The translations under genes were made by a program, and so were the position numbers. From Melampsora larici-populina 98AG31 (Eukaryota; Basidiomycota; Pucciniomycetes; Pucciniales; Melampsoraceae), in NCBI RefSeq assembly GCF_000204055.1, contig NW_006768826.1, positions 80,398 to 144,397 of the forward strand: a stretch of DNA of 64,000 nucleotides, given 5' to 3'. The notes beneath the pieces are model-generated. The model had not been told where the DNA came from. It worked only from the letters and a program-made list of their open reading frames with translations, and searched no databases. Each line of letters opens with the position of its first letter. Position 1 is the stretch's first letter. Of this stretch, positions 28,039-49,829 are shown one piece after another.

Positions 28039-28246
28039 CTTTTTTAAACTTATCACTTCAAATATATCAACAAAAATTTCTCGGATTCTCTTTTTAGTCA
28101 TCATTTTTTTTCTCTTTTCGGTATTCTGTCATCTGTCATCTGCCATCTACTTCTCGATCTCGGATCGTGAACATCCTGCTACCTGTCAAACTCAGTTAAT
28201 CTGCCACGGTATCGAACTCTGTGAATTTGGAACTCACTCTTATCGA

Positions 28247-30019
28247 ATGAGTGGGAATCTCTCTTTGAAGCCGGACAACTATCTCGACGACCCTGATTCC
28301 TTAATTAGAAAGGCTAGAAAAGAAAAACAAAAAGAAACTCAGCGCTCAGAACCGGTAGACTCCCCACCGGCACCTCCACCGACGAAATTTTCTTGGCGTC
28401 CGGAAGCAACGGTATCGGGATCGCCGGCAGAGACAGATCGCATCCTCTACGCGTCAAGCTATCAGGGGAGCAGTAATACCCAACAAGGCGCTAGGGTTAC
28501 ATTCTCACCCCCAGAACTCTCACCATCAGCTTCTGAAGGAACTGTGGTAGATCGGCATTTTACAAAACTATTGAGTCGGATAGGTAATAACCCAATCAAC
28601 CAGACCCCACATCCTCCTGGGCATTTCTTTATCGACACACCAGTAGGAAAGCTACCGGATACCACTTTCGCATCTACCACTCTCACCAATACGCCGACGA
28701 ACACTATGTCGAACGAGACGGAAGTCATCGATAACCTACGTCAGGAGGTGGAACGACTTCGGCTTCAAAACGAAGCTCTGAACCACACCAATCAGGAGGT
28801 GTTGGAGTTGAAGCAACTGGTCCAGAGCCTGCTAGCATCAAAATCGGCAGGGTCACCAACCGCCCAAGGTTCAACGAGGTTAATGAACCCAAACCTAGGT
28901 CAGGGAGAAAGTCCTCACCTTCTTGGACGATACGCACCGATTTCGCCTCAGACTCCTACACCTCTGCCTCGGGATCAAGAGAACCCTTCGACGGAACGGC
29001 CTGGGATGGAGTCCACCCCAGCTGACGTTGTCACAGCTTCAGGGGGCACTCAGCATCAACCCGCACCAGCCTCACAAGGGCAGAGAGTCAGCTGGGCCAA
29101 CAAATCTATGGGAGCTGCAGGCTTGCAAGTGCCGGCTGCTGCGGCAGAGGCGGCTGACTCACGACATCCTGCCCAATCTCCTATGCACTCTCCTCGGTAT
29201 CAGGCGATGCCGACGTCCTCGCCGGTGAATCCAAATACCGACTACAACAACCTGAACGACAGGTCTTTTCTCTCGTACCGACCTGTTTTACCGGACCTAC
29301 CAGAAACTCCTGTGACGACTTCAACAACGGCTGACAAGATCAAACTCAGTGACTTGCCGAAATTCAGCGGCAAGTTCGGTAAACCGGCGGATTTGTTTCA
29401 TTGGCAATCAATGATTGAAGAAACTTTCGAAGTGAAGAATCTTACAGACGATCGTGAGAAGATGAAACTGCTAGGGTCACTGTTGAATGATGAGGAAATG
29501 TCGGGGTGGTATCAATCGAACAAAGATGAGCTACGACACAATTCTTGGGACGGAGCGATGAAATTAATGGCTATTGGAACCTTACCGCATGCGTGGTTGA
29601 TGGACACCAGGAACGCACTACGTCGTCTAGAAATGAAGCCTTCCGAAACTCTGGACCAATACATCTCAAGAGCTCAAGCATTGCATCGACTGGTCAAGCG
29701 AATGGGCCACGAAACAGACCAAGACCTGGCACGTTACATTACCTGGGGGTGTCCACAGTTATTCCAGGATGTCATCGATCGGGAAAAACATCTCGTGGCA
29801 GAACCGTTTTCCTTTCCTGTATTCAAAGACGCCGCCGCTGGTATATGGCGCTTCTTGTCGAACGCAAAACTCTTGCCGGAACCGTCATCAAGATCCAAAA
29901 CGACTTCATCACTTGGAGCGAGCTATTCTTCGACTGCGACTCGCCCAACTGGACCTGCTAGACAACGAACCGATGAGGAGCGCGCGGATAACGCTTGGCG
30001 TTACCACGAATACCTTTGA
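28247..30019 (+). CDS. gag: Gypsy gag (capsid) polyprotein segment
   Basis: Gag of about 590 residues from the first ATG after the LTR (MSGNLSLKPDNYLDD). The frame is open further upstream into the LTR. Order: charged N-terminus, a coiled coil (VIDNLRQEVERLRLQNEALN), a long proline/serine/glutamine linker, then the retrotransposon capsid domain (KLSDLPKFSGKF, LFHWQSMIEETFEV, KLLGSLLNDEEMSGWY, LRRLEMKPSETLDQYISRA). It ends at TGA 30,017-30,019. The same frame continues directly into a cysteine cluster (CAMCKEKCNNPTC), an atypical nucleocapsid knuckle, and on into pol. Hence gag and pol are one frame separated by a single TGA. Confidence 0.9.
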   Translation: MSGNLSLKPDNYLDDPDSLIRKARKEKQKETQRSEPVDSPPAPPPTKFSWRPEATVSGSPAETDRILYASSYQGSSNTQQGARVTFSPPELSPSASEGTVVDRHFTKLLSRIGNNPINQTPHPPGHFFIDTPVGKLPDTTFASTTLTNTPTNTMSNETEVIDNLRQEVERLRLQNEALNHTNQEVLELKQLVQSLLASKSAGSPTAQGSTRLMNPNLGQGESPHLLGRYAPISPQTPTPLPRDQENPSTERPGMESTPADVVTASGGTQHQPAPASQGQRVSWANKSMGAAGLQVPAAAAEAADSRHPAQSPMHSPRYQAMPTSSPVNPNTDYNNLNDRSFLSYRPVLPDLPETPVTTSTTADKIKLSDLPKFSGKFGKPADLFHWQSMIEETFEVKNLTDDREKMKLLGSLLNDEEMSGWYQSNKDELRHNSWDGAMKLMAIGTLPHAWLMDTRNALRRLEMKPSETLDQYISRAQALHRLVKRMGHETDQDLARYITWGCPQLFQDVIDREKHLVAEPFSFPVFKDAAAGIWRFLSNAKLLPEPSSRSKTTSSLGASYSSTATRPTGPARQRTDEERADNAWRYHEYL

Positions 30020-30037
30020 CGATCGGGCATTTGTGCC

Positions 30038-33000
30038 ATGTGCAAAGAAAAGTGCAACAATCCTACCTGTACCAAACGCAACAATCGTTTCTTATCGGTC
30101 CCTTCGACTTTCGACGCGGGACCGAGACCTCTCAGAGCATCAGCTCGACCTAATCAACCAGTGGCTGGAGCAGCAACTCAGCGGCCTGCAGGAAGACCAG
30201 CCATCACAACGCAACCTACAAGAATCGCGGCAATCGAATCCATTCCTGATATGTTAACCGAAGACATAGCGGCGTATGAGGAAGCGGACCGGTTCAGAGA
30301 GAGTCAGATTCAAGAGATGCAAGGGGAGGAGGCGAGGTGCGCACCTTCTACCTCAGTATTGCCTATCATCTTGGAGCTAATGTGCAACGGAAAACTTATT
30401 CGTGCGCTCATTGATTCAGGAGCGGGAACCAATCTTCTGTCCAATCAACTGGCATCTGAATTACGTGTACCACGAAGGCCTTTGGTTTCCCCAGTTGAGG
30501 TGCGCTTAGCCATACCAACAGAGGGCGAACCTTTAGTTTTGAAAGAGTTCGCGTTGGCTAATTTGCAATCTGACTGCCCCAGCCTTTGTTTCGGTGCGGT
30601 GTTCTTCAAGTTAGCACCGCTGAGTCCAAATTACGATATCATTCTGGGATCACCATTTCTCTCTAAATTCAAATTGGATGTCTCCCTACATCGACGCTGT
30701 GTAATTCATACACCTACTGGAAAGATTTTGTATGAAATGAAAATGAAACATGAATTGAATCGAATACTCTGTGCAATTGATAATCTTCAGAAAGTAAATG
30801 AAATTCAAACCTTTATTGATAAGGAAGAGATGATGTTCAAAGAATTTGAGGACTTGTTCCCGCAAGAACTACCACCAGTTGAAGATGGTGATGAGGGGGC
30901 CGCGGAGATGGTTCCTGAAGGGATGCCGGACCCAGGTCGTCATACCAGACACAAGATAGTGTTGACTGATCCGAATGTGGTGATCAACGAAAAGCAGTAT
31001 GCATATCCGCATAGATACTTACCCGCATGGCGAAAGCTTCTTGACCAACACCTAAAAGCTGGAAGACTGCGACACTCTACCAGTCAGTATGGATCACCTT
31101 CGATGATTATCCCAAAGAAGGATCCATCGGAGCTTCCGCGTTGGGTGTGTGATTACCGCAAGCTGAACAAATACACGGTTAAAGACCGTGCGCCTCTGCC
31201 CAATGTTGATGAAGCTGTGCGGTTGGTAGCCACGGGCAAGGTTTGGTCTGTTATTGATCAGACTAACTCCTTTTTTCAAGATCGAATGAGAGAGGAGGAT
31301 ATTCCTCTGACAGCGGTAAAGACACCATGGGGGTTATATGAGTGGGTCGTGATGCCTATGGGGCTCACGAATGGACCAGCCACACATCAAGCGCGTAATG
31401 AGGAGATTTTGGGGGATTTGGTAGGCAAGATTTGTGTGGTTTATATAGATGATATTGTCATTTTTTCACAGACGGTGGAGGAACATGAAGAACATTTGCG
31501 TATGGTTTTGGAGCGCCTCAGACGCGCCAAGCTTTATTGTTCAATTAAGAAAAGTAAGCTTTTTCGAAAACATATTCATTTTTTGGGTCATGATATTAGT
31601 GAATTGGGTATTTGTCCGGATGAAGAAAAGGTAGAAAAGATTTCAAAATGGAGATCACCAAGAAGTTCAAAGGAGTTGTTGAAATTTTTAGGAACGGTAC
31701 AGTGGATGAAGAAATTTATTGATGGTCTCTCACAGTACGTAGGTACGCTATCACCGCTAACAAGTACATCACTGAAAGGAAAACCGTTCAAGTGGGGCAA
31801 GCTAGAAGAGGATGCTTTTGAGAACATCAAGCGACTTATTACAACACTTCCGGTACTTCGAAACTTGGACTACGAATCAGGAGAACCCATTTGGCTATTC
31901 ACCGACGCCAGTGGGAACGGCCTAGGAGCCGCGTTGTTCCAAGGAGCTCAATGGGACACAGCATCACCAGTAGCCTACGAGAGTCGTACCATGAACCCCG
32001 CTGAGAAGAACTGTCCAGTTCATGAACAGGAACTGCTAGCAGTCATCAACGCTCTTAATAAATGGAGGCTGCTATTGTTAGGTATGCGAGTGAATGTCAT
32101 GTCTGATCACCATTCACTTACTACTCTCTTGACTCAACGAAACCTCAGCCGCCGACAAGCCAGATGGCTTGAAACTCTGTCACAATTTGATCTGGATTTT
32201 CGCTATCTCAAAGGTCAGGATAATTCGGTGGCAGATGCTCTATCTCGTCGGGACGATGTGGCATTCTGCGAGGTTCGGGCAGGACTGACTCCAGACGACG
32301 TGCACGCCATTCGCAAAGGGTACGACGATGATCCTTTCTGTGTCAAGTTACGTAAAGTCTTACCACTACGCGATGATTGTGTCATGAAAGACGATTTCAT
32401 GTACCTTGATGAGCGTCTGGTTATTCCACATGACGGACAACTGCGTCACGAGCTAATTGACCAAGCTCATACAGCATTAGGACATTTGGGCACTTTCAAG
32501 ACACTAACCCGACTTCGAAGTACATTTTTTTGGCCAGGAATGGCGAAGGCGGTGGAAAATCAATTGAAAGTGTGTGATTCCTGTCAACGGAACAAGGCTA
32601 GGACAACGTCGACGTCGGGCAAACTGCAAAGCACGCCGGTACCAGCGGAGCCAATGGAAAGTATAGCCATCAATTTCATTGGCCCATTCCCAAAAGTGTC
32701 TGGATATGATATGATCCTTTCGGTGACTTGCAGATTAACAGGCTTCGTCAGACTGATCCCAACTTCGCAACGAGACACGGCGGAACGGTCGGCGTCACGT
32801 TTGTTTCAGGCCTGGTCATCAATCTTTGGGTTGCCAAAATCAATGGTTGGGGACCGTGATAAAGCCTGGACGTCGAGATTCTGGGGACGTCTGCACGAAC
32901 TCTTAGGCGTAAAAGTCAATCTGTCAACTTCTTACCACCCGCAAGCGGACGGACGGAGTGAGCGGTCGAACAAGACCATTGGTCAAATCTTGCGGCACTT

Positions 33001-33220
33001 AGCAGGTGAGAAGCACGGTAAATGGCTTCATTCATTACCATCAGCGGAGTTTGCTATCAATTCAGCTACAAACAGTTCGACGGGAATTAGCCCTTTTCAC
33101 TTCGTCTATGGGCGGGTTCCACGCTTATTTCCGGTAGAATCTCCTCTGCAAAACGAAGAAGAAGATGTCAAGCACTGGATAGAGCGACGACAAACTGAAT
33201 GGGCCACCTGGCGAGACTGA
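30038..33220 (+). CDS. pol: Gypsy pol: protease, reverse transcriptase, RNase H, integrase
   Basis: Follows the TGA at 30,017 in the same frame as gag. Aspartic protease: ALIDSGAGTNLL. Reverse transcriptase: GSPSMIIPKKD, RWVCDYRKLNKYT, PMGLTNGPATHQ, active site VVYIDDIVIFS. RNase H: FTDASGNGLGA, HEQELLAVINAL, MSDHHSLTTLL. Integrase zinc region has H, H, CDSC; the core has GDRDKAW and DGRSERSNKT. The first catalytic aspartate, normally in a (S/M)DFIGP-type motif, reads INFIGP here (codon 32,672-32,674, Asn), so this integrase should be catalytically dead. The reading stops at TGA 33,218-33,220, beyond which the same frame resumes with the rest of the integrase. Probably synthesised as a polyprotein in active relatives. 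Confidence 0.95.
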   Translation: MCKEKCNNPTCTKRNNRFLSVPSTFDAGPRPLRASARPNQPVAGAATQRPAGRPAITTQPTRIAAIESIPDMLTEDIAAYEEADRFRESQIQEMQGEEARCAPSTSVLPIILELMCNGKLIRALIDSGAGTNLLSNQLASELRVPRRPLVSPVEVRLAIPTEGEPLVLKEFALANLQSDCPSLCFGAVFFKLAPLSPNYDIILGSPFLSKFKLDVSLHRRCVIHTPTGKILYEMKMKHELNRILCAIDNLQKVNEIQTFIDKEEMMFKEFEDLFPQELPPVEDGDEGAAEMVPEGMPDPGRHTRHKIVLTDPNVVINEKQYAYPHRYLPAWRKLLDQHLKAGRLRHSTSQYGSPSMIIPKKDPSELPRWVCDYRKLNKYTVKDRAPLPNVDEAVRLVATGKVWSVIDQTNSFFQDRMREEDIPLTAVKTPWGLYEWVVMPMGLTNGPATHQARNEEILGDLVGKICVVYIDDIVIFSQTVEEHEEHLRMVLERLRRAKLYCSIKKSKLFRKHIHFLGHDISELGICPDEEKVEKISKWRSPRSSKELLKFLGTVQWMKKFIDGLSQYVGTLSPLTSTSLKGKPFKWGKLEEDAFENIKRLITTLPVLRNLDYESGEPIWLFTDASGNGLGAALFQGAQWDTASPVAYESRTMNPAEKNCPVHEQELLAVINALNKWRLLLLGMRVNVMSDHHSLTTLLTQRNLSRRQARWLETLSQFDLDFRYLKGQDNSVADALSRRDDVAFCEVRAGLTPDDVHAIRKGYDDDPFCVKLRKVLPLRDDCVMKDDFMYLDERLVIPHDGQLRHELIDQAHTALGHLGTFKTLTRLRSTFFWPGMAKAVENQLKVCDSCQRNKARTTSTSGKLQSTPVPAEPMESIAINFIGPFPKVSGYDMILSVTCRLTGFVRLIPTSQRDTAERSASRLFQAWSSIFGLPKSMVGDRDKAWTSRFWGRLHELLGVKVNLSTSYHPQADGRSERSNKTIGQILRHLAGEKHGKWLHSLPSAEFAINSATNSSTGISPFHFVYGRVPRLFPVESPLQNEEEDVKHWIERRQTEWATWRD

Positions 33221-36360: not shown

Positions 36361-37212
36361 TCCATTTCAGTGCATCAGTCAATTCATCCAATGGCATCCA
36401 ATGTAAGTCTAACCCTAACCCCAACAATAATCTGAGAGGATTGTTACTAAATATATCCAATGCTTCTTGTCTCCTTTGCTTTCACAGCAATTTTGATGCC
36501 AGTGTGAATACAAGGTGGCCAGAGTATGGGAAAAATTAGGTCTATATACATCATATGCTTGTTTGCTGCTTTGGAATTTTGGCAAGATCAATGCTCACAA
36601 AACGGAAGATTAGCATAGATGAAAGAAAATAATGGCAACATGGGTCATATTGGACATGAGATCAAGTGTCAAATAATTGACTTCTCCTCAACATTTATTT
36701 ATCAAAACAATTTTTTTTCCTTGTGTCATTTTGACACCCTTCCTACTCTGAACCAACTTGTTCATTATGCTGAAGAAATTGTCTTGATGTCAAGTGTCTG
36801 TTGGGTTTCCATTGAATTACTTCAAGAAATATATGCCTGCTTGCAACTTGTTCTCTAGCATGCCCTACATGCAGCCAGTGCCTACCATGAGCCACACACT
36901 GGCCTCCTCCAGTTTTTTGCCACTATTCATCATTTGGCCAATTAGGGGTGAGACCCACTTGGATTTGCAAACAATCTGCCCACAGTTTTGAAGACAAAGG
37001 GATCAGTTTTAACCCATAATAAAACCAATCCCTCTGCTCCCAAATCATTCCTCCCACTAACCATCCACTTTCAACTGCTTCATCTAGTCTGAAATTCATT
37101 ATAACCTCATTCTCCACTCAAATCGTATCAACAAACATTCAAATCCTTTTTTTAATATATCATTTAATCTACAAATCTTCAATCAAACTTTACCAAAACC
37201 CAGGTTCCAGCA
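36361..37212. other. AT-rich spacer upstream of gene C
   Basis: No gene supported. A run of T/A-rich sequence at 37,090-37,200 precedes the gene C start and would include its promoter. Confidence 0.4.
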
Positions 37213-37387
37213 ATGGAAGGAAACTCAGGTATTTTCATACATCCTAACCTTGTGCATCCCAGTCACCTTGTGCATCAACTAATTTCAAGCATTCCATCTC
37301 TATCACATTCAGGAGATACTAGCACTGGGTCAGGCACTGCATCTGGATCTGGCCCTGCAGCCATGGAAATTGATCCCATCATGGATC
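37213..37387 (+). pseudogene. Gene C, first exon (interrupted by the 10.9-kb element)
   Basis: Frame from ATG 37,213 (MEGNSGIFIHPNLVHPSHL), a low-complexity TGSGTASGSGPAA linker, then AMEIDPIMD. It is cut at 37,387 inside the codon after GAT, where the inverted-repeat element starts. The direct repeat TGGATC (37,382-37,387) recurs at 48,324-48,329. Gene C belongs to a rust family I know only as hypothetical proteins. The reading frame at the left break matches the phase needed at the right break. Confidence 0.7.
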
Positions 37388-37620
37388 TACGGAATGCGAG
37401 ACGTTCCAAAGTGACAATGCGAAATTTCAAAAATCACAATCCCCGGGTGCAAAATTCAAAAATCAAAGACAAAACTACAGAAAATACTCAAATACAGGGA
37501 TAAAACCCCTGTACCAGAGTAAAAATCATGGCAGAAACACATTTTTGCCCAAATTTCCAGTGGTCGGCACCGTTTTCATTGCATTGTCACCTTTCAACAA
37601 AAAGTACCAGCAACACCAAA
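37388..37620 (+). repeat. Left terminal inverted repeat
   Basis: Pairs with 48,090-48,323 in reverse complement. The longest shared stretch without differences covers about 70 bp from 37,432 (AATCACAATCCCCGGG onward). It also contains an internal inverted pair GTGACAATGC (37,411) and GCATTGTCAC (37,581). Confidence 0.9.
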
Positions 37621-37859
37621 AATCAAAAAATCAAAAACATAAAATCAAAAAACATAAAATACAGTTCTCAAACTGTACAACTCAAACACCAATGTTAGAT
37701 TCTACCGCAGCCAAAAACCACATGTTGGCCAACTAGCTACAAGCTCAGTCTCACAGGTATCAACACCTCCGACCGGAGACATTCTACCATCTGTCTCAAG
37801 AGCTTCAAAGACCTGCTTCCTGTCTCGCTCTCCTCCAAAACCCTCTTCCACCATCATCA

Positions 37860-38100
37860 ATCCTCTTTGATTGCCCTTGATCTTCTCCAATCTTTGTCAA
37901 CCGTTCTTGATCTTCCTCAATCTTCATTATCCGTCCTCGATCTTCATCTTTCTTCGTCAACCGTCTTTGATCTTCCTCAATCTTCGTCAACTGGCCTCGA
38001 TCATCATCAATCTTTGTCAACTGTCCTTGATCTTCTTCTTTCTTCGTCATCCGTCCTCAATCTTCATCTTTCTTCGTCAACCGTCCTCAATCTTCCTTAT
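37860..38100. repeat. Left subterminal tandem array (CTTGATCTTC / CAATCTTCGTCAACCGTC)
   Basis: Imperfect repeats of about 27-30 bp built on GATCTTCCTCAATCTTCGTC. The array resembles, in reverse complement, the GAAGATTGAAG/GATCAAAG array at 47,340-47,810 near the other end of the element. Confidence 0.75.
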
Positions 38101-38375
38101 TGACCACCTAGCTGCTAGGTGACCTTAAAAGTAAGGCCACCTAGCAGGTAGGTGGCCAGCCCATCGCACGATCACTAGGTGATAGTGCGATGGAGCAACC
38201 CAGGGCCGAGACCGCGTCTCGGCCCCGGACCGGGATCCTGTGCCATTGCACAATCATCGAGTGATCGTGCGATGGCACAGGCACCTAACCGCTAGGTAGG
38301 TGTATTTGATTTAACCACCTAGAGATTAGGTGGTTAAATCACTATTAAACCACCTAATCTGTAGGTGGTTAAAGA
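38101..38375. repeat. Cluster of five or more nested hairpins
   Basis: Consecutive palindromes: CCACCTAGC/GCTAGGTGG forms, CCATCGCAC..GTGCGATGG around 38,160-38,193, GGGCCGAGACC..GTCTCGGCCC around 38,206-38,227, CTGTGCCATTGCAC..GTGCGATGGCACAG around 38,238-38,281, and GGTTTAAT/TTTAACCACC types to 38,372. Motif CACCTAG recurs throughout. No gene. This could be recombination-prone satellite or replication-origin-like sequence of the element. Confidence 0.8.
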
Positions 38376-38607
38376 CATAGCCTTGGACTGGGAGTCAAGA
38401 TTCGAATTCGATTCCATCCTGTCTAATCAAGTGTCCCAACTTTCAATCCAACCCGATTATTGATCATCAAACAACTCATCGACTCAACTCACTTTCCCAA
38501 TAAACGAATTGCTTGTTATTTGAGTAAGCGCTTTCAAGATACGATCAACTCCATTTAAATCATGACATCCTTCACTGACTTATGTATTCTTTCACCTTTT
38601 AGTAAGC

Positions 38608-41600
38608 ATGTCTTACGAAACGCGTGCTTCGCCACCTCAACTCAACTTCGATGAGTTGAAATCCCAGGCCTCCTCCGTTTCGGAAACGGATTCCGAAGGA
38701 TCAAGACCAAAAACGAACAACATCATCGGGACTCAGCCGAAGTTCACCGCCCCTTTGTTCCAAACGTTTTCGCAAGCTCCTTCCGCCCCGGGCCCTTTTG
38801 ATGTGGTTCGAAAAGTCGGCTTATCCAATAATGAAGTCCAAGAGATAACTAAGGAGGAGTATTATCGCAATGTCCATTCGACTTCCCGGATTCTCAAAGA
38901 ACAGCTGAGTGTGGCTGGTCTTCCACCACAAGTATACGACCTAATTGAGCAGGCTGGACAGGCATGTGATGATGCTTTCCAAGGTGAAACATTTCCCATT
39001 TGGTAATGGGAAAGGTCAAGAACTGATCATTTCTACCTCATTCCAGATATCGAGCGTGGAAAACAACCTCCTACTCACCCGAATGTCAAAGTGATCTGGA
39101 TCACAGATGATTCTCCGCCTCCGCCCAACGGAAGACGGTCTGAACGGACTCGTGATGCAGTTCCGAGCTACTCCGGAAACCAGTTACGATCGAAGCGAAA
39201 CCGATTGAACCTCACTTCGAAACCCAAAGCCCCTGTTACAAACGAAGATCACGATTCAAACGAAGATGCCCCAGGTGAAGATGATGATGAGGACCAGGAG
39301 GAAGAGGATGTCCAAGTTGATGGATTAGGACCTATTGAAGGAAAAAAACAAATTACAGAAGATGAAGAAAACAAAGATGATGATGAGGACCAGGAGGAAG
39401 AGGATGTCCAAGTTGATGGATTAGGACCTATTGAAGGAAAAAAACAAATTACAGAAGATGAACAAATCGATGTGAATATTGATGATGATGATGGCACTCA
39501 AGATGAACACGCAAACAACCCACCTCACTTGAGTCAACGTAAGGTAAACAAACTGGTCATTCAAACCTCTTCAGATTTAGATGGTGAACCGCTTTTGTCA
39601 TCTAAATCTTCTCCTCCTCCCGAATCGACGAGTGCGCCTTCTCCATCTCCTCAAACCGAACCTCCTCCTGAGGAAAACGCTTCAGATACTGAACTCGCTC
39701 TTCTGCGATTGAGAGAACCGCGATCTTCACCGGTTTCGGAAGTGTCACCTGAACATATTACTCATCACGACGATAGCCAAACGGCCGAAAGAGGAGTGCT
39801 AGATCATTCAGGACAACATGGTCCTGAATCATTACCTGCAGACGTTGATTCAAGACTTGCGGAAGCTTGACTTAACACGGTGAATTTGAATTCACAACAA
39901 TCCACTATGGTTCTCCCATCTGAGACCATTCCATCTGATGGAATCCCGAAGACACCCAATGTCATATCGCCTGGAAATGCTCATGACAGCACGGTTCAAC
40001 CTCTCACTGACACTACAAGAAAGATAATATTTTCTGGGCAGAAAATTAAATTATTGATACACAAAAATATTGAGAGGCCAGGAGGAGAGCAAAAAATGAA
40101 TAAAAATATGCATCTTGTTCCCTGCGTTGAGAACTTCACTCTGCATATTTTTCCGTATTTTTACAGTCCATATTGATAAGTGTACTAACAATAAACCTTC
40201 ACAATCATCCAATTACAACCTGTAACAAGCACTGAAATTTGGCTCATTAGTGTTTAGAGAAACTTTTGATTTCTGAAAATACTCATAACTTTTTCAATTC
40301 CGGTCCAAAACGCTCGATTTTGGGTGCATTGGTAAGCTGGAATTGTCCTCCAAATAGTTCATAATAGGACCACACAGCATGCTGGTCTGCTAAAAAAGAT
40401 ATCATCTTTTTTATACATTTGTACATACAGATCCATAGAATGATTGTCATACTAGCTACATAGTTCTTGATCTTATGAAAGTTCGAGAGGAAGAGTTCAG
40501 CATTCTAATGCACTTAAAATCGAGTGTTTTGAGGCAGATTTGACAAAGTTATAGGTGTTTTCAGAAATCAAAAGTTTCTCTAAACACTAATGAGGCAAAT
40601 TTCAGTGCTTGTTACAGGTTGTAATTGGATGATTATGAAGGTTTATTGTTAGTACACTTATCAATACGGACTGTAAAAATATGGAATAATATGGAGAGTG
40701 AAGCTCTCACCGCAGGGAACAAGATGCATAATTTTATTTATTTTTTGCCCTTCTCCTGGCCTCTCAATATTTTTGTGTATCAATAATTTAATTTTCTGCA
40801 CAGAAAATATTATATTTAGTGTAGTGTGAACTCATCAAGAATCATATTGGTGAGTTTGTATTTTACACTCAGCCAGGAACTTCTCAGAGTAAGACCTCCA
40901 TAGCTAAATCCTTTATGCTTTCAATTATCCTCATTGTGACCTTTGGCTTTCTGACATAGATTCCGAAGTTCAAATCACACCTTGTGAAGATCCCATGGAT
41001 TTAGACATCCCTGTCTTTGACTCGACTGACCTTGGTACCATTCCAACCACAACTGACTCCGATACTTTGGAGATTGGATTTATACTCAAACACCACAAAA
41101 TCTTCAGCGCAAGCTTTACAGAATTTCCACCCAAGAAACTTCCTTCAGCCACCTTTGCAAAAGGAAGAGATAGTGCTTTCTCTCTGATCTCCATGAGGCT
41201 TGATCACATTCCACTCCTCGAGAAGCCATCCTTTCAATTGCCTCTGGGGACTCATTTTTCAGGCAGCAAGATGACTAATTCTGCTTGGCTCCAATTTGTG
41301 AATGAGCAGGGTGAGTACACATGAATGAATAATGAGTCCAGCAAACTCTTATGCTTTTTTTTTGTCACAGGGCTACAATTCTTCACTCCTGCTGAAGGTG
41401 AATTGCTGTTTAGCTCTGAAATATGGAGCCCTTCTTTGTTTCAAGAATCTTTCAATCTGGACCTGGATTCAAATTTATGGCCTTTTCAATTATGGCGGAC
41501 TGTGCGGCCTACTGGATGTCCTTCCCAAAAGAAACGTCGAGAGGTTGCTAATTTATTTCAAGATGCTATTGCAGTTGCTGGGGATCAAGTTATTCACAAG

Positions 41601-42380
41601 AATACCTTTGAAGAAAACCCGGATGCTACTCCTTATGAAAATAGTTATAGATTTGTTTCTCATTTATTATTAACTCGTCCAACCTTAGGCTCCAGTGGTG
41701 GCGGAGAAAATCAACTTACTTCAGGCTTGTCAGGATCTCAATTAATTGCACATGAATCAGCAGTGGTCAAAGCTGGTACATTAAATAATCTTCAAAACTT
41801 TTCAGTCAGTGTTCACGATGTATTAATGGGGCTAGCTGTACTTGATTTACATTCACAAATTCCTGAAAAAGCAACTGATACTGAACAAAAACAAATCAAA
41901 AAAGATATCAATAAGAAGATTGACGAATTGAAGGAGGTTGGGTTTGGTTGGGGTTCCTTGGCCGGTTTCATAACTAGTGGTGTTAGAGGGTTAATGTTGG
42001 CTTCAAGAGATAAGCATGTGCCAGTGGGCAATTCTATGGCAATCATCAAGGCTGCGGAGGAAATTCAAAAGTTGGAGAAGATTCAGATCAAGGAGAAGAT
42101 TTGGTGCCGGACTCATGATTACATTATGGGACTTTTGGTCAAAGGCTATTTCCCTCACAAGCGGTCAGTTCATCCTGGGAAATCAGTGTTTGGTGAAGTC
42201 AAGGTTCAAAAGATTCAGCTGGCCATATGCCTGGCCTACGACATTGGATACTATTGGTCGGTGCAGGTACCAGGTATGACTTGTGCTATTCTTCCTAAAG
42301 CTTATATCCCAACGGTGAAGATCAACAACACCAAAATGACAGTTGTAGGGGAAGAGGAAGATGCAATGGATCTTGAGTGA
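38608..42380 (+). CDS. Gene B: unknown rust-type protein, interrupted by one TGA and a MITE
   Basis: Unknown family. Exons 38,608-38,983, 39,047-40,888 (including a 816-bp MITE), 40,960-41,310 and 41,371-42,380, with good GT..AG ends. N-terminus MSYETRASPPQLNFDEL, then a charged region with a 32-residue duplication (EDQEEEDVQVDGLGPIEGKK twice) and an S/P-rich linker. After TGA 39,868-39,870 the frame continues LNTVNLNSQQST. Exon 3 (MDLDIPVFDST, FAKGRDSAFSLISMRL) and exon 4 (FNLDLDSNLWPFQLWRTV, helical VHDVLMGLAVLDLHSQ) look folded. The C-terminal GWGSLAGFITSGVRGLMLAS then HDYIMGLLVKGYFP resembles gene A. It lies inside the TIR element and reads away from the left end. It could be the element's own mobilisation protein, but no catalytic motif is recognised. 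Confidence 0.6.
39280..39471 (+). repeat. 96-bp in-frame tandem duplication in gene B
   Basis: Two nearly identical 96-bp copies starting at 39,280 and 39,376, encoding 32 residues each in the acidic linker. Being a multiple of three, the duplication keeps the frame. Confidence 0.85.
40011..40826. mobile_element. CACTA-type MITE (816 bp) in an exon of gene B
   Basis: Terminal inverted repeats of about 260 bp: the left end starts CACTACAAGAAAGATAATAT and the right end, reverse complemented, CACTACACTAAATATAATAT. Target duplication TGA on both sides (40,008-40,010 and 40,827-40,829). The arms also share AAATTTGCCTCATTAGTG-type and TGTAACAAGCACTGAAATTT sequences. No coding capacity. Removing it with one TGA copy leaves the gene B frame open (LTE then LIKNHIGEFVFYTQPG). 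Confidence 0.9.
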
Positions 42381-43367
42381 TTGTTTTGTATTTTCTATGT
42401 TTTGTTTTCTGCTTTCGTCACCAAAATACTCTTATGTAAGCAATGTCAACTATCATTGGTTCTTGAGTAATGAAACTTTCCGTGCTACGACCTCTGTGTG
42501 AACCATATGATGACATGTGAGATATGTAAACATATCAACTGTAAGGTGTAAGGCTAAGTGTAATGCTACATGTGTATACATCGTGTAATGGCTGACCACA
42601 ACTCAGCCACCATTCGAGTGGAAGCATTTAACCAGTCCTTTGTTCCCAGATTCTTCTGATCTTATTATTATTGAAATCTGTTCTGTCCGCTTCCTTCAAT
42701 TTGTCGAATCAACCAAGGTAATCCATGTTCTTCCTTTGTCTTCCTGTCTGTTCTTTACTTCACCGAGATGAAGACAGATCATATAAGAAGAAGTATCATA
42801 TCCTCAAGAAGAAATGGAAAGTTGAAGAATCCACAAGAAGCTGAATCTAATTGAATGTAGATGAATAAATCAATCAACATTTCTCAAACATCTGTTCAAT
42901 TCATCGCAAAAGAAGACTCATATAATTCAAAACATTTACCTCTCATGATTTACTCACGAACAATTATTGAAGACAGTGGCACTTGAGATACATGCAGAGA
43001 TGTTTATGTCTTGTGAAGGGCAGGGCAAGTGACTGAGGGGTCCCCCAACTACCAGCCTAACCCTTTGCTAAATGTATCTCGGTGCTTCCGCATTTCATTC
43101 CTCAAAAAATTACTCAATACTCAACTTCAAACAATGAATCATAGATGCAAATTAACTTATATCAAATGATTTACAGCTCACCGTTATTCATTCCTCAAGA
43201 AATTACTCAATACTTATTCATTCAATTATTCATTCATAAGATCTCACATTGAATCATTTCATACAACCAAAATTTTATTCACTTATTTCTTTGCATCCCC
43301 ACACACATTCCAAAATATTCAAGTGTTGAACATACCATTAATCAAAGCAATGTTTTTTTCCCTGTAG
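42381..43367. other. Spacer between gene B and the Tet-like gene
   Basis: No gene seen. AT-rich; contains repeats of ATTCATTCCTCAA(A/G)AAATTACTCAATAC at about 43,098 and 43,189, just upstream of the oxygenase gene. Confidence 0.5.
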
Positions 43368-45002
43368 ATGCCCAAACCAGTATCTGAACTCCGAAAGCAA
43401 AAGATGGTCGAGTACCAAAAACGGAAGAAGGCTCAACAACACAATGCCCAACGGGATCCAGTCCGGGATGTTGGAAGAGAACATGTCAGTCAAAGAATCA
43501 AAGCAGGAATCAAAGACCGGTTTGGCTTGCCAGAGGACTGTGATGTATTCCGAGTTCCTCAATTTGGGAACAGGAAAGAGCGAGTAGTGACCTATGGAAC
43601 TGTGGTACTTGTGAATCTGGCTGGAAATAAGCTTATATGTGTTGCTAGGTTCAACAAAGAGGTCAACTCCCTCAAACTTTCTGTTGTTTCCACATGGCTG
43701 ACGTTTCTTGCTGCAGGACCCCGCCAGCATTGACCCTGCCCAAGTGCAACTTTGGAAAGACTTTCGAAGGGCTATCAAGATCATGCATCAACATTCTGAA
43801 GCACGGGGAGTGATCAAGGAAAATCATGCAGTCAAGATGCTACCGCCCCACGAGCGGCAAGGTACTATGAAAGCATTTGGTCACAGATCATCTAAGCGTG
43901 CTGGACAATATCAAAGAGGAACAGTTATTGGTTTGTTTATCTTCACCTTTCCACAGGAGGAAATTTCAGAAACTTAATTTGTTCAATGTCTTAACACCAG
44001 CAACCTATGCCCAAAATTCATCTACCAGCGAGGACCCAGCCAAACTAGACGAGGACGAAGCCCGCCAAGATGAACTTCCTTGGGTAGTGGACTTTCATGC
44101 TGAAAGGACATGTTCATTATCTCTATTTGTGTATGATTCCAACAAGAAGCTGGCCGAAGACACTGATGCCCCGTTGTGGGGATCAAAAGAGCCAGTGCCT
44201 GGTAGCAAAGAGTGGGAGAAATTACCCAATGCCCAAGTCTTTGGGGACAAGGCTTTTGTGGGATCCAATGTGATTGCTACCACTGGAGGATTCCGCAACG
44301 GAGTTCATTGTGACTTTGATGCCACTGGATTTGCTTCTGGTTTCTTCTGCTTAATTGATGCGAACACATGTTGAGTATTTAATATTCACAGCCTTATGAC
44401 CAATCTGCTGACATATGTAATTTATTACAGCTGAAATTATTACTCCGGCAAGAAGACTCGAACTTTTGGCCGAGAGGAAGGAAGAAATTGAACTAGAGAA
44501 GAAGACTGGACACCGCATTGATAAGAAGCATCTCCAAGTTGGTGCCAAGTTTGTAATTCACATCAGTCACTATTTCAAGTTTATTGTAGACATCAATGCA
44601 GCTGATGTGGTAGAATTACTGTGGGCAACAGATGTTCGCCACAACAAGGAACATTTTTTATTTTCTGAAGGAGAGAAAAAAAAGACAACATACTTGCAGG
44701 GTGCTGTAACAAGGGAAAAAACCAAGGCAAGAAAAGGGATTGGAAAGAGTAAAGGGGCGGTAGACCATGTACTTGCTTATGCTTGTAGCACTCAGATCAG
44801 TACCACTGTGGTGGCAGCCATGAAGGAGATTATGGAACAGCGGGTTGGTTTGGATGATGAGAGCTGGGAAAAATTGCACAGCGGCCTTGCAGAGACCTAC
44901 GATAAGCAGATGCAACGGAAACGGGCCAATTTGGACCATCTTCAGAATAAGATTACTTCTTATAAGGAAACAAAAGGTTCAGCACTCAGATTTTTAAAAT
45001 GA
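43368..45002 (+). CDS. Tet-like 2OG-Fe(II) dioxygenase (TET/JBP-type family)
   Basis: Predicted iron/2-oxoglutarate oxygenase; family members are thought to oxidise methylated bases, and TET/JBP genes are expanded in basidiomycetes and linked to transposons (established). Starts MPKPVSELRKQKM. Pieces: 43,368-about 43,656, about 43,719-43,930, about 43,975-44,370, about 44,432-45,002. Seen: EDCDVFRVPQFGNRKERVV with TYGTVVLVNLAG, RQGTMKAFGHRSSKRAGQY, then the core GSNVIATTGGFRNGVHCDF (HxD iron ligands, H and D) with FASGFFCLID, and KFIVDINAADVVELLWATD. A basic helical tail follows (KRANLDHLQNKITSYKE). The join near 43,930-43,990 does not resolve cleanly by splicing, so a frameshift is possible. 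The stop lies 138 bp from the stop of the convergent alpha-kinase. Confidence 0.7.
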
Positions 45003-45140
45003 TATATACATTTTTTTTTGTTTTTAAGATGAAAATTTTGTGAGCAAAGGGTTTTTGTAAATTTTTGAATTTTTTAAGAGCAACAAATTTTGGAATACAG
45101 ATTGAAAGGAAAGAATTTACTCCTGAATTTCCGCCTTGTG

Positions 45141-47304
45141 CTAATCTCTTGCTGGAATATGAGTCTGTTCCCCAGACTTACCTCCATACAACAGCTCCAT
45201 CTCCTCCCGTAGACTTAATTTTGCTACCTTTGGCAGTAGCAACCCCAGGTGCTTGCATATCTTGTTGCATTTGTGCTGGGTAGAGAAGTTCTCCAAGCCT
45301 TTCCTTCCAGTATTTCCATCGCACCAAGCCATACTGGGGCCAAAACAAACTGTCAGGCAAAATGTTGGAATGCAAGCAGAAAAGTACTTACTTGCTCGTA
45401 TCCACAATCAAAGGGTCTGTCAATACCAAACCTACCCCCTGAAGATCTGCAACCATTCTTCTTCCCCCATAGTGTTTATGAGACCAATGACTGAGAGCTT
45501 GCATTACTTCATTGACTAAAGGACTGTCTGAAGGCCGGAGTTCAAAGTTGTGATTGCTGGTATACTTGCGGTATTGTGTAACATCAAGTACTTCTTCAAA
45601 GAAATAAGCACATTCTGTCGTAGCACTGCTTCCTGCATAGACCGGAAAGTTTTGAACCATCTGGAAAATAAAAACATGTTATCGAGAAAGCTTGAATAAA
45701 ATGAGATCCATATATTTGACTCACACGAATGTTTTGGATAGCTTCAACCGTTGCAGGGAAAAGTTGAATTTCATTCAGTCCCAAAGCGGCTTTCTTAAAC
45801 TTTTCAATCACCATGGAAACAGCAGCATACACTCCACCGGATTCTTTATGGACAGCCAGATGAGTCATATTGGGAGGCAGCTCCCTCCGCTTCTTGGCAA
45901 CCATTGGAGTGACCTCTCCACCAGGTGTTCTTCCAAAGGCATTGTAACATGTCCTGAAAGAACCTTTTCCAATCACCACACTTTCATCAACTTTGAAATG
46001 ATACGGTGTTACCACCCATTCAGGTTTACCTTCTGCATTTCCTGTCAAAATGCATTTTTTCCCTACGGTGAAACCGTCTGTAGTCTCAGCAGGTGGAACA
46101 GGGCAAGCCATGGGAAGCTTTCGTCCAAATACGGAGATATCAATAGCCTCTCTGAAATCAAAGGCCGGTACTAAGGAGGGCATGTCAGCCAGACCAAAAA
46201 TGAGTAGTGAACAAGAGTGGTGAGCTTACCTGTCTGGTGAGGTGGTATCACATGAGTCATAGCTACAGGAGCCACATCACTCTGAGCACGGTGGGGAGAT
46301 TTTCGTGGGGTGATGGGTGGCGGGAGTGTGTATGTACTATTCTTGGTTTTAAAATTAGAAGCCTTCTTTTGAGTGACTCGTGGTGAGGTGACTTTTGTTG
46401 AAGTTGAAGGTGTACACCTGGCTTTCTTGCTTGGCTGGAATATTTCGACACTCAAAGGCAGATCACCATCACTATCACTATCACTATCACCATAATTCGC
46501 TTCTTCATCTCCATCATCTAATAACATCTCCTCATAAGTCAAATGTTGAGATGCCTTTCTTTTAGCTTGTCGTTGAGGTTGTACCGGCTTACTGGTGGAA
46601 GGTCGAAGCCAAGGATTATTTTTGACATATTTGTCAGCCAGAAAAATTAGCTCGAGGCTAGGTTCTCCTTTAGTGTCGTCAAGATATCTGGCAAAAACTT
46701 CATTGTTATGTAAGACCACAGGTGATTTCCGGCCACAGCCGGTTTTGGCCAGGTTGAAATACTCAGAGTTGTAAACTTTGGGTGCCTGAGGGTAAAGAGG
46801 AGAGTCAACAGAGTGGTCCCACAGGTTGAAGATGCCTTCCTTAGTGTCGTCCAAGAGTGTCAACGATGACCTATCCACAGTGAAAGTTCCCCAAAGTAGA
46901 CCATGAGCGAAAGAGCCTGCCTCGTATATCACCATCCATCCTACAGAGCATACTCGGCCAGTGTGAGTAGTGAAAGGTGGAGGTTTAGGTGCTGCTGGGT
47001 GACCATTAAACATGCGGTTGCTGCTAGCTTGTTTCTTGGCAGCAGCTCGCTTTGACTTGTCGCTTTGAAGTTGGTGGACATGAGTACCAGTGGAAGTCGA
47101 GGTACGGGCTGCAACAGCTGCTTTGGCATTGATGACCTTGAGATTGGCAGGGCGGGGTTGAGAAGCTTGGGTGGGTGCCTGCTGGGGGGGAGAAGGAACC
47201 TTTTTGTTTTGGTCCGCATTGATGTGTTCAAGGCAGGGTCCACATATTTTGTGCTCGCCTTGACGGAGAGTACTTTGACATAAGGGCCGAGTAGGTCGGT
47301 TCAT
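45141..47304 (-). CDS. Alpha-kinase (MHCK/EF2K-type) with long disordered N-terminus
   Basis: Atypical serine/threonine kinase. Exons 47,304-46,230, 46,170-45,725, 45,660-45,392 and 45,333-45,141, all GT..AG and in phase, giving one open frame. The start chosen is the ATG of MNRPTRPLCQSTL because the upstream in-frame codons are repeat-coded. The N-terminal half is basic and low in structure (KRKASQ, a DSDSDSDGD acidic patch, PPPITPRKSPHR), with a small folded part (HTGRVCSVGWMVIYEAGSFA). Kinase domain: VIGKGSFRTCYNAF (glycine-rich start), MVAKKRRE (ATP-binding lysine), VNEVMQALSHWSHKHYGG, catalytic MVADLQGVGLVLTDPLIVDT, DGNTGRKGLENF, and the zinc-binding STQHKCNKICKHLGL. All hallmark motifs are present, so it is likely active. 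Alpha-kinases are expanded in rusts. Its presence inside a TIR element suggests cargo. Confidence 0.9.
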
Positions 47305-47339
47305 GATAGTGAAATATGAGTATCCGAGAGAAACCAAAG

Positions 47340-47810
47340 TCAAAGAAGAAGCTGATTGAAGAAGATTGAGGTCGATCAAAGAAGATTGAAGTCGATCGGA
47401 GAAGATTGAAGTCGATCAAAGAAGATTGAAGAAGATTGAAGAAGATTGAAACTGATTCAAGAAGATTGAAGAAGATTGAAGAAGATTGAAACCGATTCAA
47501 GAAGATTGAAGAAGATTGAAGAGAATTGAAGAATACTAGGGAACAATGAAGCTGATACAAGAATATTGAAGAAGGGTGAAGCCGATCCAAGAATATCAAA
47601 GAAGATTGAAGACAATCAAAGAAGGATGAAGAAGAGTGGAGACGATCAAAGAGGTTCAGTGTAGTGTAGAAGAGTGAAGACGATCAAATAAGGATGAAGA
47701 AGAGTGGAGACGATCAAAGAGGTTCAGTGTAGTGTAGAAGAGTGAAGACAATCAAATAAGGATGAAGAAGAGTGGAGACAATCAAAGAGGTTCAGTGTAG
47801 TGTAGGTTTG
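47340..47810. repeat. Right subterminal tandem array (GAAGATTGAAG / GATCAAAGAG)
   Basis: First part (47,365-47,600): GAAGATTGAA repeats with period 10-30. Second part (47,600-47,810): three copies of a block of about 65 bp containing GTGGAGACGATCAAAGAGG and TTCAGTGTAGTGTA. It lies just upstream of the alpha-kinase start and mirrors the left array. Confidence 0.8.
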
Positions 47811-48089
47811 GTTGAACAAGTGGATGGGTGGAGACTATGACAAAAGTTGGAGGAATGACTAAGATGATTGGTGATGGTGTGTGGGTTGTGTGATTGGTTG
47901 AGAGGTAGAGGTAGAGAGGTACACTTTTCATCATCTAATGTGAAGTTTTCATTTTTGGGGTCTTTGTTTATGGTTTGTTAATTGTCGTTTTTTGATTATC
48001 GACATTTGTTTTTTGATTTTCGACTTTTGATTTTTTGATTTTGTGATTTTTGAATTTTGATGTCCTCTTTTGTGGTTTCCTGGTACTTT
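47811..48089. other. Inner flank of the right inverted repeat
   Basis: No gene. From about 47,970 simple TTTTTGATTTTCGACTTTTG-like sequence corresponds in reverse complement to the AAATCAAAAA stretch at 37,615-37,670. Confidence 0.5.
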
Positions 48090-48323
48090 GCGACAATGGG
48101 GTGACAAATGTTGAGTTTCAAGTTGTAAATCTACTGAAATTTGGGCCGTAACCTGGTCTGAAAGGGGTTTCTGCCATGACTTTTACTCCGGTACAGGGGT
48201 TTTTGCCCTGTATTTGAGTATTTTCTGTAGTTTTGTCTTTGATTTTTGAATTTTGCACCCGGGGATTGTGATTTTCGTTTTTTGATTTTTGCATTGTCAC
48301 CTTGACACCTCTCGCATTCCGTA
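48090..48323 (-). repeat. Right terminal inverted repeat
   Basis: Reverse complement of 37,388-37,620 with scattered differences. It ends TCTCGCATTCCGTA at 48,323, followed by the target repeat TGGATC. Confidence 0.9.
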
Positions 48324-49829
48324 TGGATCAAATAGATGGTAAGTCCATGCATGTCTTCATGTGGTTTTGTTATTCCAACATTGAACTGACATCTCACATA
48401 ACCCTTTATTCAGATCATGTAGAGGAGGAACCTGGACTTACTTTTGAGCAACGTGTTGCACTTCAGATTGCCAAGGAGCGGGAGGCCCAGAAGAGACAGC
48501 AACAGCGGAAACTTGAAGCTGACAAACAACGTGCTAGGAAAGAGCCCACGGACAGCATCAATCTAGTAGGCCTTACCTCTGCTGTACAAGAGTGGGCTAG
48601 GGCCTTAATGGGACTTCCTCAACAAGCCAGCCATCGCTCCTCTCCTAAGATCACTGCTGCTGCTCTACTTCAACGTCATCTTCCTGCTGAACCGACTGCT
48701 GAGGAGGTTGAACACTGGGCTTCATATGCTGCCAAACAAACTCAGTATTTAGATGTCAATATTCAGGCAAAGATGGATGAGATCTTTGCTAAGAACCCCT
48801 CTGCGACTGAATTGGAGATGTGAATCAAATTGTCAAAGGAAGCTGTTCTCATGTTCATCAAAACCAATCCACCTCCCAAATTTGTTTCTTGAGTAGCCCA
48901 CGCCACTGCCTCTGTCACCACTTACGATGCTACTTGCTTATCCAACGCTGAAGGCAAATTTCAACAATGTGGCTTTTCCTCTATCACTTTCCAATGGACC
49001 AGTCCAACTGCAACTCCTTGGAACATGGCTATGTTGGACACCTTAGTTACTAGCTGGTTAGATATTTATAATGCTTGAGCTGTATCTGCTGGATTTCCAA
49101 TTGACGCTGGTCTCGATGTTCCCCTGGAAGCAAGGGACATCCTTTCTCGCTGGATTATCAATAAGCGCAGAGTTTTTCGAGATGAAGAGAAGGAAAAGAA
49201 GTTGGTGTCCACACCAGGAGGAGGTGAAAAACTGGTTATGAAAAAACATACTGAGAGGGAGAAACTAGCTTTGAAAAACATCAAGAAAAAGGTAACATGC
49301 TCAACTATTCCCCCTTTGCACAGGGACTCATACTGACAGGTGCATTTGTCAGCTGTGTGATAAACGGGCTGCGGCAGTTGAGCCCTACTTTCGTAACTTC
49401 TCTGGCCCAATCAAAGTCCTCCTCAAGTCTCAAGAGGTTCATTCTGATACCGAAATGGACCCAGAGAAGCCTGGCAAGTTTAGGAAAATCAAGCTCAACT
49501 GGCGGACACCTCAGCTTGATGAATTGATTCAACTGGCTGATAAAGCAGCTCCCAACTGGGAGGGCACCAAAAAACAAAATGACAAGTTGATGGAATTTTT
49601 CCAATCTAGAGGACCATATTCACCAAATGTGCCTGATCCTGAGGATCAGCTTCCTCCTAAGACTCTTCCCAAGTGCCTCATCAAGCCAGAAATACTTGCC
49701 AAAGGGATTGATGCGATTACGATTGATAGTCTGGAGTTGTCCAACACCCAAGTTGATCTCCAGTCTGCTATTGACATTTTGAAACAAAAGCTGGGGAAAG
49801 GCAATGCAATGACAATTTCTTCCTCCTGA
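48324..49829 (+). pseudogene. Gene C, continuation after the element; three in-frame TGA codons
   Basis: Resumes gene C after the insertion. Pieces: 48,324-48,338, intron to 48,413, exon 48,414-49,291, intron, exon 49,353-49,829 (TGA). Seen: EEEPGLTFEQRVALQIAKER (coiled), KITAAALLQRHLPAEPTAEE, VEHWASYAAKQTQYLDVNIQ, FVS then VAHATASVTTYDATCLSNAE, ILSRWIINKRRVFRDEEKEK, KLNWRTPQLDELIQLADKAA and LPPKTLPKCLIKPEILAKG. This is a rust-restricted family of unknown function, many copies per genome in my recollection. TGA codons at 48,821, 48,890 and 49,076 all lie in one frame; each could come from CGA. With the upstream split, this copy is dead. Confidence 0.7.

What the first reader, a model, noticed from the sequence alone, without database searches (positions are those of the whole stretch)
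37382..48329. 10.9-kb inverted-repeat element carrying a Tet-like oxygenase, an alpha-kinase and an unknown protein, with no known transposase
Seen: inverted ends starting TACGGAATGCGAGA, similar for about 200 bp, flanked by TGGATC on both sides. Inside are gene B, a TET/JBP-type oxygenase and a complete alpha-kinase. Known: TET/JBP genes are associated with KDZ transposons in basidiomycetes, and alpha-kinases are expanded in rusts. Inferred: the two expansions may spread together on a TIR element of an undescribed type, with gene B (or an outside enzyme) doing the moving. This is the best candidate here for a new system.
Basis: partly seen in the sequence, partly recalled or inferred. Interest (0 to 1): 0.92.

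Follow-up and report, generated by a model that had tools for sequence, protein, structure and literature searches.

The report
Deleted IS3EU transposon carrying epigenetic genes
This is a shortened copy of a known kind of fungal jumping gene, from what appears to be the poplar rust genome; it has lost its transposase but kept a DNA-demethylase-like gene and a kinase, and its longer relatives also carry a chromatin-remodelling gene that I did not find described for this family.

Summary
Window 37,388-48,323 (10,936 bp) has inverted ends (TACGGAATGC..GCATTCCGTA) and a 6-bp duplication, TGGATC. It carries an open TET/JBP-type oxygenase, a complete alpha-kinase and gene B. Four paralogous empty sites carry one TGGATC. 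It is not an undescribed type: TAYGG..CCRTA ends, 6-bp duplications and the order transposase-TET-alpha-kinase are those of IS3EU, already reported in rusts including Melampsora larici-populina (PMC12730594). The genome here is probably that species (an MELLADRAFT protein matches at 100%). Of 24 end-paired copies, 21 have exact 6-bp duplications; 9 hold a DDE-transposase core, which this copy lacks. So the window copy is a non-autonomous, internally deleted, mosaic member, presumably moved in trans. Apparently new: one IS3EU clade also carries a Rad5-like SNF2 ATPase and gene B between transposase and TET. The SNF2 gene lies near 18 of 24 transposase loci of that clade against 1 of 66 others. 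The five-gene order recurs in a second subfamily (36-66% protein identity), and 41 of 41 computable exon comparisons give dN/dS below 1. Gene B shows no recognised fold and no sign of being a transposase. What the cargo does (relief of silencing) is inferred, not shown.

The parts
37382..37387 (.). left copy of the 6-bp target site duplication TGGATC
   Evidence: single copy at paralogous empty sites
37388..37550 (+). left terminal inverted repeat, TACGGAATGC..., about 160 bp
   Evidence: 40 scored matches in the genome
38608..42380 (+). gene B, unknown protein; exon pieces about 38608-38985, 39046-39870, 40959-41309, 41370-42380; frame stops at 39,870 and a repeat is inserted, so probably broken here
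   Evidence: relatives with an open main exon; purifying selection
40010..40827 (.). MITE-like inverted repeat (two 355-bp arms, 88% complementary) inserted in gene B; another copy of it is the target of an IS3EU insertion (L027)
41400..41440 (.). approximate mosaic junction: left of it 64-81% identical to three long copies, right of it 90-100% (one window at 79-80% in two copies, over an 18-bp gap)
43368..45002 (+). TET/JBP-type 2OG-Fe(II) oxygenase, exons 43368-43661, 43717-43930, 44001-44369, 44431-45002; 482 aa open; HxD motif in VHCDFD
45141..47304 (-). alpha-kinase, exons 47304-46230, 46170-45725, 45660-45392, 45333-45141; 660 aa open
48161..48323 (-). right terminal inverted repeat, ending GCATTCCGTA
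   Evidence: 40 scored matches
48324..48329 (.). right copy of the target site duplication TGGATC

Best explanation
The feature is a non-autonomous member of an IS3EU DNA-transposon family in what is probably Melampsora larici-populina. A long ancestor, like today's 16.7-18.2-kb copies, carried in order: left inverted repeat, DDE (D58D40E) integrase-like transposase, Rad5-like SNF2 ATPase on the other strand, gene B, a TET/JBP-type oxygenase, and an alpha-kinase on the other strand, right inverted repeat. The window copy lost the transposase and SNF2 part, took the 5' half of gene B from a diverged sister lineage, and later received a MITE-like repeat in gene B. It was inserted at a TGGATC site by a transposase supplied in trans from a longer copy, presumably by cut-and-paste (inferred). 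TET oxygenase, SNF2 ATPase, alpha-kinase and gene B are kept by selection; the likeliest use is to open or un-silence element chromatin and DNA (inferred).
For: Ends and duplication. 21 of 24 paired copies have exact 6-bp duplications. Empty sites: 4 of 12 right-flank matches reach the junction (L038, L039, L040, L044) and show one TGGATC; L027's insertion likewise has an uninserted counterpart in the window's repeat. Transposase: PF24764 E=7.9e-11, D58D40E in two subfamilies, inside 9 of 24 paired copies. Seven of 24 (C86, C12, C19, C28, C75, C71, C13) hold transposase, SNF2, gene B and alpha-kinase matches, and all seven have exact duplications. The window copy aligns to three of them at 94-96% (longest blocks) over the TET and kinase part. 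Second subfamily C34: the same five-gene order. dN/dS 0.00-0.86 in 41 computable of 49 rows, below 1 in all 41. IS3EU features in print: 6-bp duplications, TAYGG..CCRTA, TET between transposase and oppositely oriented alpha-kinase, TA..TA ends.
Against: No Repbase consensus or IS3EU tree was available, so superfamily assignment rests on ends, duplication length, gene order and Pfam. Three of 24 pairs lack the duplication. Transposition was not observed; the empty sites are paralogous, not allelic. The C34 pieces contained no TAYGGAATG end. Sampled exons of several long copies contain stops (8 of 49 rows), so which copy supplies transposase is unknown. dN/dS rows share query exons and were not tested for significance; rows at 100% identity were dropped.
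Confidence: 0.92

Rival explanations
1. A new transposon type in which gene B is the recombinase and the element is autonomous.
For: Gene B is conserved (46-96% identity in the best rows) and under purifying selection; the window copy has no other candidate.
Against: Gene B has no transposase match in Pfam, NCBIfam or PDB sequences. Copies with the same ends carry a DDE transposase. Gene B was near 0 of 66 other transposase loci (query from one clade only, so diverged forms could be missed). The AlphaFold models are helical but of low confidence (mean pLDDT 44.5 and 42.1), so they neither prove nor exclude a fold.
Confidence: 0.03
2. SNF2 and gene B are only passengers, caught once and duplicated with the element, with no role in its life.
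For: They occur in one IS3EU clade only; 15 of 24 paired copies have no transposase match and many have lost most genes, so the cargo is dispensable in cis.
Against: Same order and orientations in two subfamilies at 36-66% identity and dN/dS 0.11-0.44 for SNF2 and gene B where computable.
Confidence: 0.15
3. A KDZ (Dileera/Kyakuja/Zisupton) element.
For: KDZ elements in rusts carry TET/JBP genes (PMC12730594).
Against: Duplications are 6 bp, not 7 or 8; the linked transposase is PF24764/rve-like.
Confidence: 0.01
4. A Polinton/Maverick-like virus-related element, which also has 6-bp duplications and long inverted repeats.
For: 6-bp duplications and an integrase-like transposase; Polinton's 6 bp is stated in PMC10045372.
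Against: The ten gene pieces of the C28 copy scanned match integrase core, SNF2/helicase and TET-like models and no polymerase or capsid model; not every open frame was scanned.
Confidence: 0.01

Closest known systems
TET+ IS3EU DNA transposons of Pucciniales (Kojima 2025, PMC12730594)
   Same: 6-bp duplications; TAYGG..CCRTA ends; transposase and alpha-kinase in opposite orientations with the TET gene between; reported from M. larici-populina among seven species.
   Different: The window copy lacks transposase. The long copies here add an SNF2 ATPase and gene B; SNF2 is not mentioned in that paper's main text. TET has the transposase's orientation, which the paper reports for three families, all from P. 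striiformis or P. coronata. Its Table S1 was not read.
IS3EU/GingerRoot superfamily in general (PMC10045372, passages)
   Same: TA..TA ends, usually 6-bp duplications, DDE transposase related to IS3/IS481; weak NCBIfam IS3 match, E=0.0017, below cut-off.
   Different: I have seen only passages; none mentions cargo genes of this kind.
KDZ transposons (Dileera, Kyakuja, Zisupton)
   Same: Also carry TET/JBP genes in fungi.
   Different: 7- or 8-bp duplications and another transposase.
Plant VANDAL elements with VANC anti-silencing proteins (seen in a listing and abstract)
   Same: Transposon-encoded proteins that counter silencing, the role inferred here.
   Different: Unrelated elements and proteins; no experiment here.

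Membership tests
IS3EU (TET+ rust lineage) | termini TAYGG..CCRTA, inverted repeats over 30 bp | tested here: met
   TACGG..CCGTA, about 160-bp repeats
IS3EU (TET+ rust lineage) | 6-bp target site duplication | tested here: met
   TGGATC at the window copy; 21 of 24 paired copies; empty sites
IS3EU (TET+ rust lineage) | TET gene between transposase and oppositely oriented alpha-kinase | tested here: met
   met in the long copy C28 and in C34; in the window copy TET and kinase are present, transposase absent
IS3EU (TET+ rust lineage) | transposase gene in this very copy | tested here: not met
   no core match inside 37388-48323; hence non-autonomous
IS3EU (TET+ rust lineage) | DDE integrase-like transposase in the family | tested here: met
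   PF24764 E=7.9e-11 (C28) and 1.9e-10 (C34), D58D40E
IS3EU (TET+ rust lineage) | transposase clusters with Repbase IS3EU in a tree | not testable with these tools
   no Repbase sequences at hand
KDZ | 7- or 8-bp target duplications and KDZ transposase | tested here: not met
   6 bp; PF24764-type core
Polinton/Maverick | protein-primed DNA polymerase B, capsid genes | tested here: inconclusive
   none among ten pieces scanned of the C28 copy; not all frames scanned

The most novel reading that the evidence does not exclude
One clade of rust IS3EU transposons carries a heritable chromatin-opening kit: a TET-type DNA oxygenase, a Rad5-like SNF2 remodeller, an alpha-kinase and a new helical protein (gene B), kept together by selection across diverged subfamilies to lift silencing from the element's own DNA. 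Much of the apparent expansion of SNF2 and alpha-kinase genes in this rust genome is then transposon cargo rather than host gene-family growth: 21 of 41 SNF2 loci lie within 16 kb of element parts, and 78 of 144 alpha-kinase loci lie within 10 kb of them.
Probability: 0.45. Interest if true: 0.72.

Novelty: new variant of a known kind. Interest (0 to 1): 0.5.

Why it matters
Transposons that carry their own DNA-demethylase candidates were known; a clade that also keeps an SNF2-type ATPase would let a single mobile element act on both DNA marks and nucleosomes. It would give a natural case for asking which layer of silencing restrains transposons in rusts. It also bears on annotation: part of the SNF2 and alpha-kinase gene counts reported as large in rust genomes (both appear in a domain table of PMC5295586, rows seen in passages only) may be transposon genes.

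Tried and rejected
Gene B as transposase: rejected (no transposase match). Its best PDB sequence match, a viral fusion protein at E=0.012, and the others up to E=0.98 were taken as noise. Its homologues are few: four, six, one from Melampsora americana, the rest unnamed or metagenomic. Two AlphaFold jobs gave mean pLDDT 44.5 and 42.1, so no fold search was run.

KDZ membership: rejected on duplication length and transposase type. Polinton: not favoured, not fully tested.

A first thought that the genome was a Puccinia, and that the 78% match to a Melampsora larici-populina SNF2 protein meant horizontal transfer, was dropped when that protein matched contig C100 at 100% over residues 3-407 of 408, with one TGA inside the match.

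Inverted ends of the C34 subfamily were looked for in the fetched pieces and not found; the pieces (76,500-82,000 and 83,800-89,500) may not reach its ends, and 82,001-83,799 was not fetched.

The TET family search scored 150 of 263 candidates and its list does not include the window's weakly matching TET, so TET loci were left out of the linkage counts; linkage of TET in long copies rests on the C12, C19 and C28 copies and on C22 and C34.
Full report
What is there. The window lies at G000:C62:80398-144397 of a 98.3-Mb, 243-contig genome. Between 37,388 and 48,323 (10,936 bp) an element is bounded by inverted repeats starting TACGGAATGC, with TGGATC immediately outside each end. The repeats align at 144 of 164 columns. 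Inside are, from the left: gene B (+), a TET/JBP-type 2OG-Fe(II) oxygenase (+; PF20515, E=1.4e-11, 482 aa open over four exons) and an alpha-kinase (-; PF02816, E=1.7e-34, whole profile, 660 aa open over four exons). Gene B is probably broken in this copy: its frame stops at 39,870 and a 0.8-kb inverted repeat lies at 40,010-40,827.

It is a mobile element. The left end has 156 candidate matches in the genome and the right end 146; 40 of each were scored, and all 80 matched at 92% identity or more, so copy numbers are lower bounds. 24 of the 40 left ends pair with a right end on the same strand within 40 kb. All 24 pairs were read at their ends: 21 have an exact 6-bp duplication, being the window, 13 of 16 (L020, L021 and L026 fail) and 7 of 7 (the C10 duplication is poly-T). 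The right flank of the window element occurs at 12 places. Four of these (L038, L039, L040, L044) reach the junction and show uninserted sequence with one TGGATC; the other eight matches begin 88 bases or more into the flank and say nothing. An independent case: the short copy L027 sits in a copy of the same MITE-like repeat that interrupts gene B here, and the window's copy of that repeat is the uninserted form with one CTTATC. All of these empty sites are paralogous, not allelic.

It belongs to a described superfamily. PMC12730594 (parts 1-4 of 7 of the text, its figure-legend and supplement sections and passages read; supplementary table not read) describes TET-carrying IS3EU transposons from seven rust species, M. 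larici-populina among them, with 6-bp duplications and ends TAYGG..CCRTA, and states that all TET+ IS3EU families have the TET gene between transposase and alpha-kinase, which are in opposite orientations. PMC10045372 (passages) gives TA..TA ends and usually 6-bp duplications for IS3EU. That matches what is found here.

The missing transposase is in longer copies. Nine of the 24 paired copies contain a match to the transposase core and 15 do not. In the C28 copy the core matches PF24764 (E=7.9e-11) and more weakly rve, with a D58D40E spacing also found in the C34 subfamily. Seven of 24 paired copies (C86, C12, C19, C28, C75 at 16.7-18.2 kb; C71 and C13 at 29.4 and 34.9 kb) contain matches to transposase, SNF2, gene B and alpha-kinase, and all seven have exact duplications. 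The window copy aligns to three of these at 94-96% over the TET and kinase part in the longest blocks. The economical reading is an internally deleted derivative moved in trans. Excision and insertion by cut-and-paste are inferred from the superfamily, not shown.

The window copy is also a mosaic. To the left of about 41,430 gene B is 64-81% identical to three long copies; to the right it is 90-100%, apart from one window at 79-80% in two copies where an 18-bp gap lies. Synonymous divergence is 1.3-1.5 in gene B exon 3 against 0.08-0.17 in exon 4, leaving out the distant C34 copy. The left half is closest to copy C100 (83% and 81%); the other matches in the list are 68-73%.

What is new. The long copies carry a gene on the opposite strand to the transposase that matches SNF2-related domain and helicase C-terminal models (PF00176 E=3.8e-28 and 6.5e-27; PF00271 E=8.5e-9). 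One exon's best solved-structure match by sequence is RAD5 (E=1.6e-12); for the other exon an archaeal SNF2/RAD54 helicase comes first and RAD5 second, so 'Rad5-like' is a moderate claim. The SNF2 family search found 79 matches in 41 loci (90 of 90 candidates scored), and 21 of these 41 loci lie within 16 kb of a transposase core, gene B, alpha-kinase or left end of this family (no shift control was run for SNF2). Sorting 90 transposase-core loci by identity to the C28 core, an SNF2 locus lies within 13 kb in 18 of 24 loci at 63% or more and in 1 of 66 below that; gene B in 8 of 24 and 0 of 66; an alpha-kinase in 9 of 24 and 39 of 66. The low kinase figure in the first group reflects the length of its copies, in which the kinase lies at the far end. 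The gene B query came from one clade, so diverged forms elsewhere could be missed. So SNF2 and gene B mark one IS3EU clade, while the kinase is shared more widely.

The five-gene order is old. The C34 locus has transposase (-), SNF2 (+), gene B (-), TET (-) and alpha-kinase (+), the same relative order and orientations as C28, at 36-66% amino-acid identity by exon. Of 49 pairwise exon rows, 41 gave a dN/dS value and all 41 were below 1: transposase 0.00-0.34, SNF2 0.23-0.33, gene B 0.11-0.44, TET 0.12-0.86, kinase 0.06-0.50; eight rows had no computable value, rows at 100% identity were dropped, the rows share query exons and were not tested for significance. Eight of the 49 rows contain a stop, so many copies are damaged. 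SNF2 is not mentioned in the main text of PMC12730594, and literature searches for SNF2 with rust or transposon terms gave no such report; PMC12210899 on rust transposons mentions neither IS3EU nor SNF2 (term search). The paper's three families with TET in transposase orientation are from P. striiformis and P. coronata, so this clade may not be among its M. larici-populina families; its Table S1 would settle that.

Alpha-kinase expansion. 147 alpha-kinase matches (150 of 243 candidates scored) form 144 loci. 37 lie within 10 kb of a transposase core and 78 within 10 kb of any part of these elements (core, ends, gene B, SNF2). In eight rigid shifts the same counts were 0-7 and 1-9 (shifted points can fall off contigs, which lowers them). 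By single matches, 39 of 147 lie within 10 kb of a core; 36 have one in the opposite orientation and 6 in the same.

Which organism. A protein of Melampsora larici-populina 98AG31 (MELLADRAFT_84097, P0007) matches contig C100 at 100% over residues 3-407 of 408, with one TGA in the match. The genome is probably that species or very close to it; this rests on one transposon protein.

How it most likely works. Shown by sequence: ends, duplications, empty sites, gene content, conservation. Inferred: the DDE transposase of long copies cuts and pastes both long and deleted copies; the TET-like oxygenase and SNF2 ATPase make element DNA and chromatin accessible; the kinase and gene B regulate or assist. 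The catalytic HxD of the TET-like protein is present (VHCDFD), and its likely third ligand histidine is recalled from the family pattern, not tested. Gene B remains unknown: no family, few homologues, low-confidence helical models.

Verdict. The element is real and correctly bounded; the type is known; the copy is a non-autonomous derivative; the SNF2-plus-gene-B clade is a new variant as far as the searches show.

Noticed in passing
window 10287-13774 (-): Helitron-like replication and PIF1 helicase gene in pieces (PF14214 E=3.7e-53, PF05970 E=1.1e-39).
   Followed up: partly
window 27986-33217 (+): LTR-retrotransposon-like pol frame with reverse transcriptase, RNase H and integrase zinc-binding matches; its upstream 677-aa frame has no Pfam match.
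   Followed up: partly
window 40010-40827: MITE-like 355-bp inverted repeat; a 98.5% copy lies in L023 and another is the insertion target in L027.
   Followed up: partly
window 37000-37387 and 48324-48823: The element's target belongs to a repeated sequence with 12 scored matches (73-100% identity), four of which reach the junction.
   Followed up: partly
G000 C41, C68, C71, C105, C15, C49, C18, C34, C42 (two), C28, C69 (L017-L028): Twelve paired copies of 6.0-9.7 kb with no transposase-core match; most keep kinase fragments, so deleted derivatives outnumber the seven four-gene copies among the 24 pairs.
   Followed up: partly
G000 C13:1460199-1495076 and C71:302230-331584: Two very long paired copies (34.9 and 29.4 kb) with exact 6-bp duplications; in C13 the transposase core is 94% but SNF2 and gene B only 53% and 52% identical to the queries, suggesting another mosaic or nested insertions.
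   Followed up: no
window 21283-22581 (-) and 24490-25833 (-): Two open frames of 433 and 448 aa without Pfam matches.
   Followed up: no
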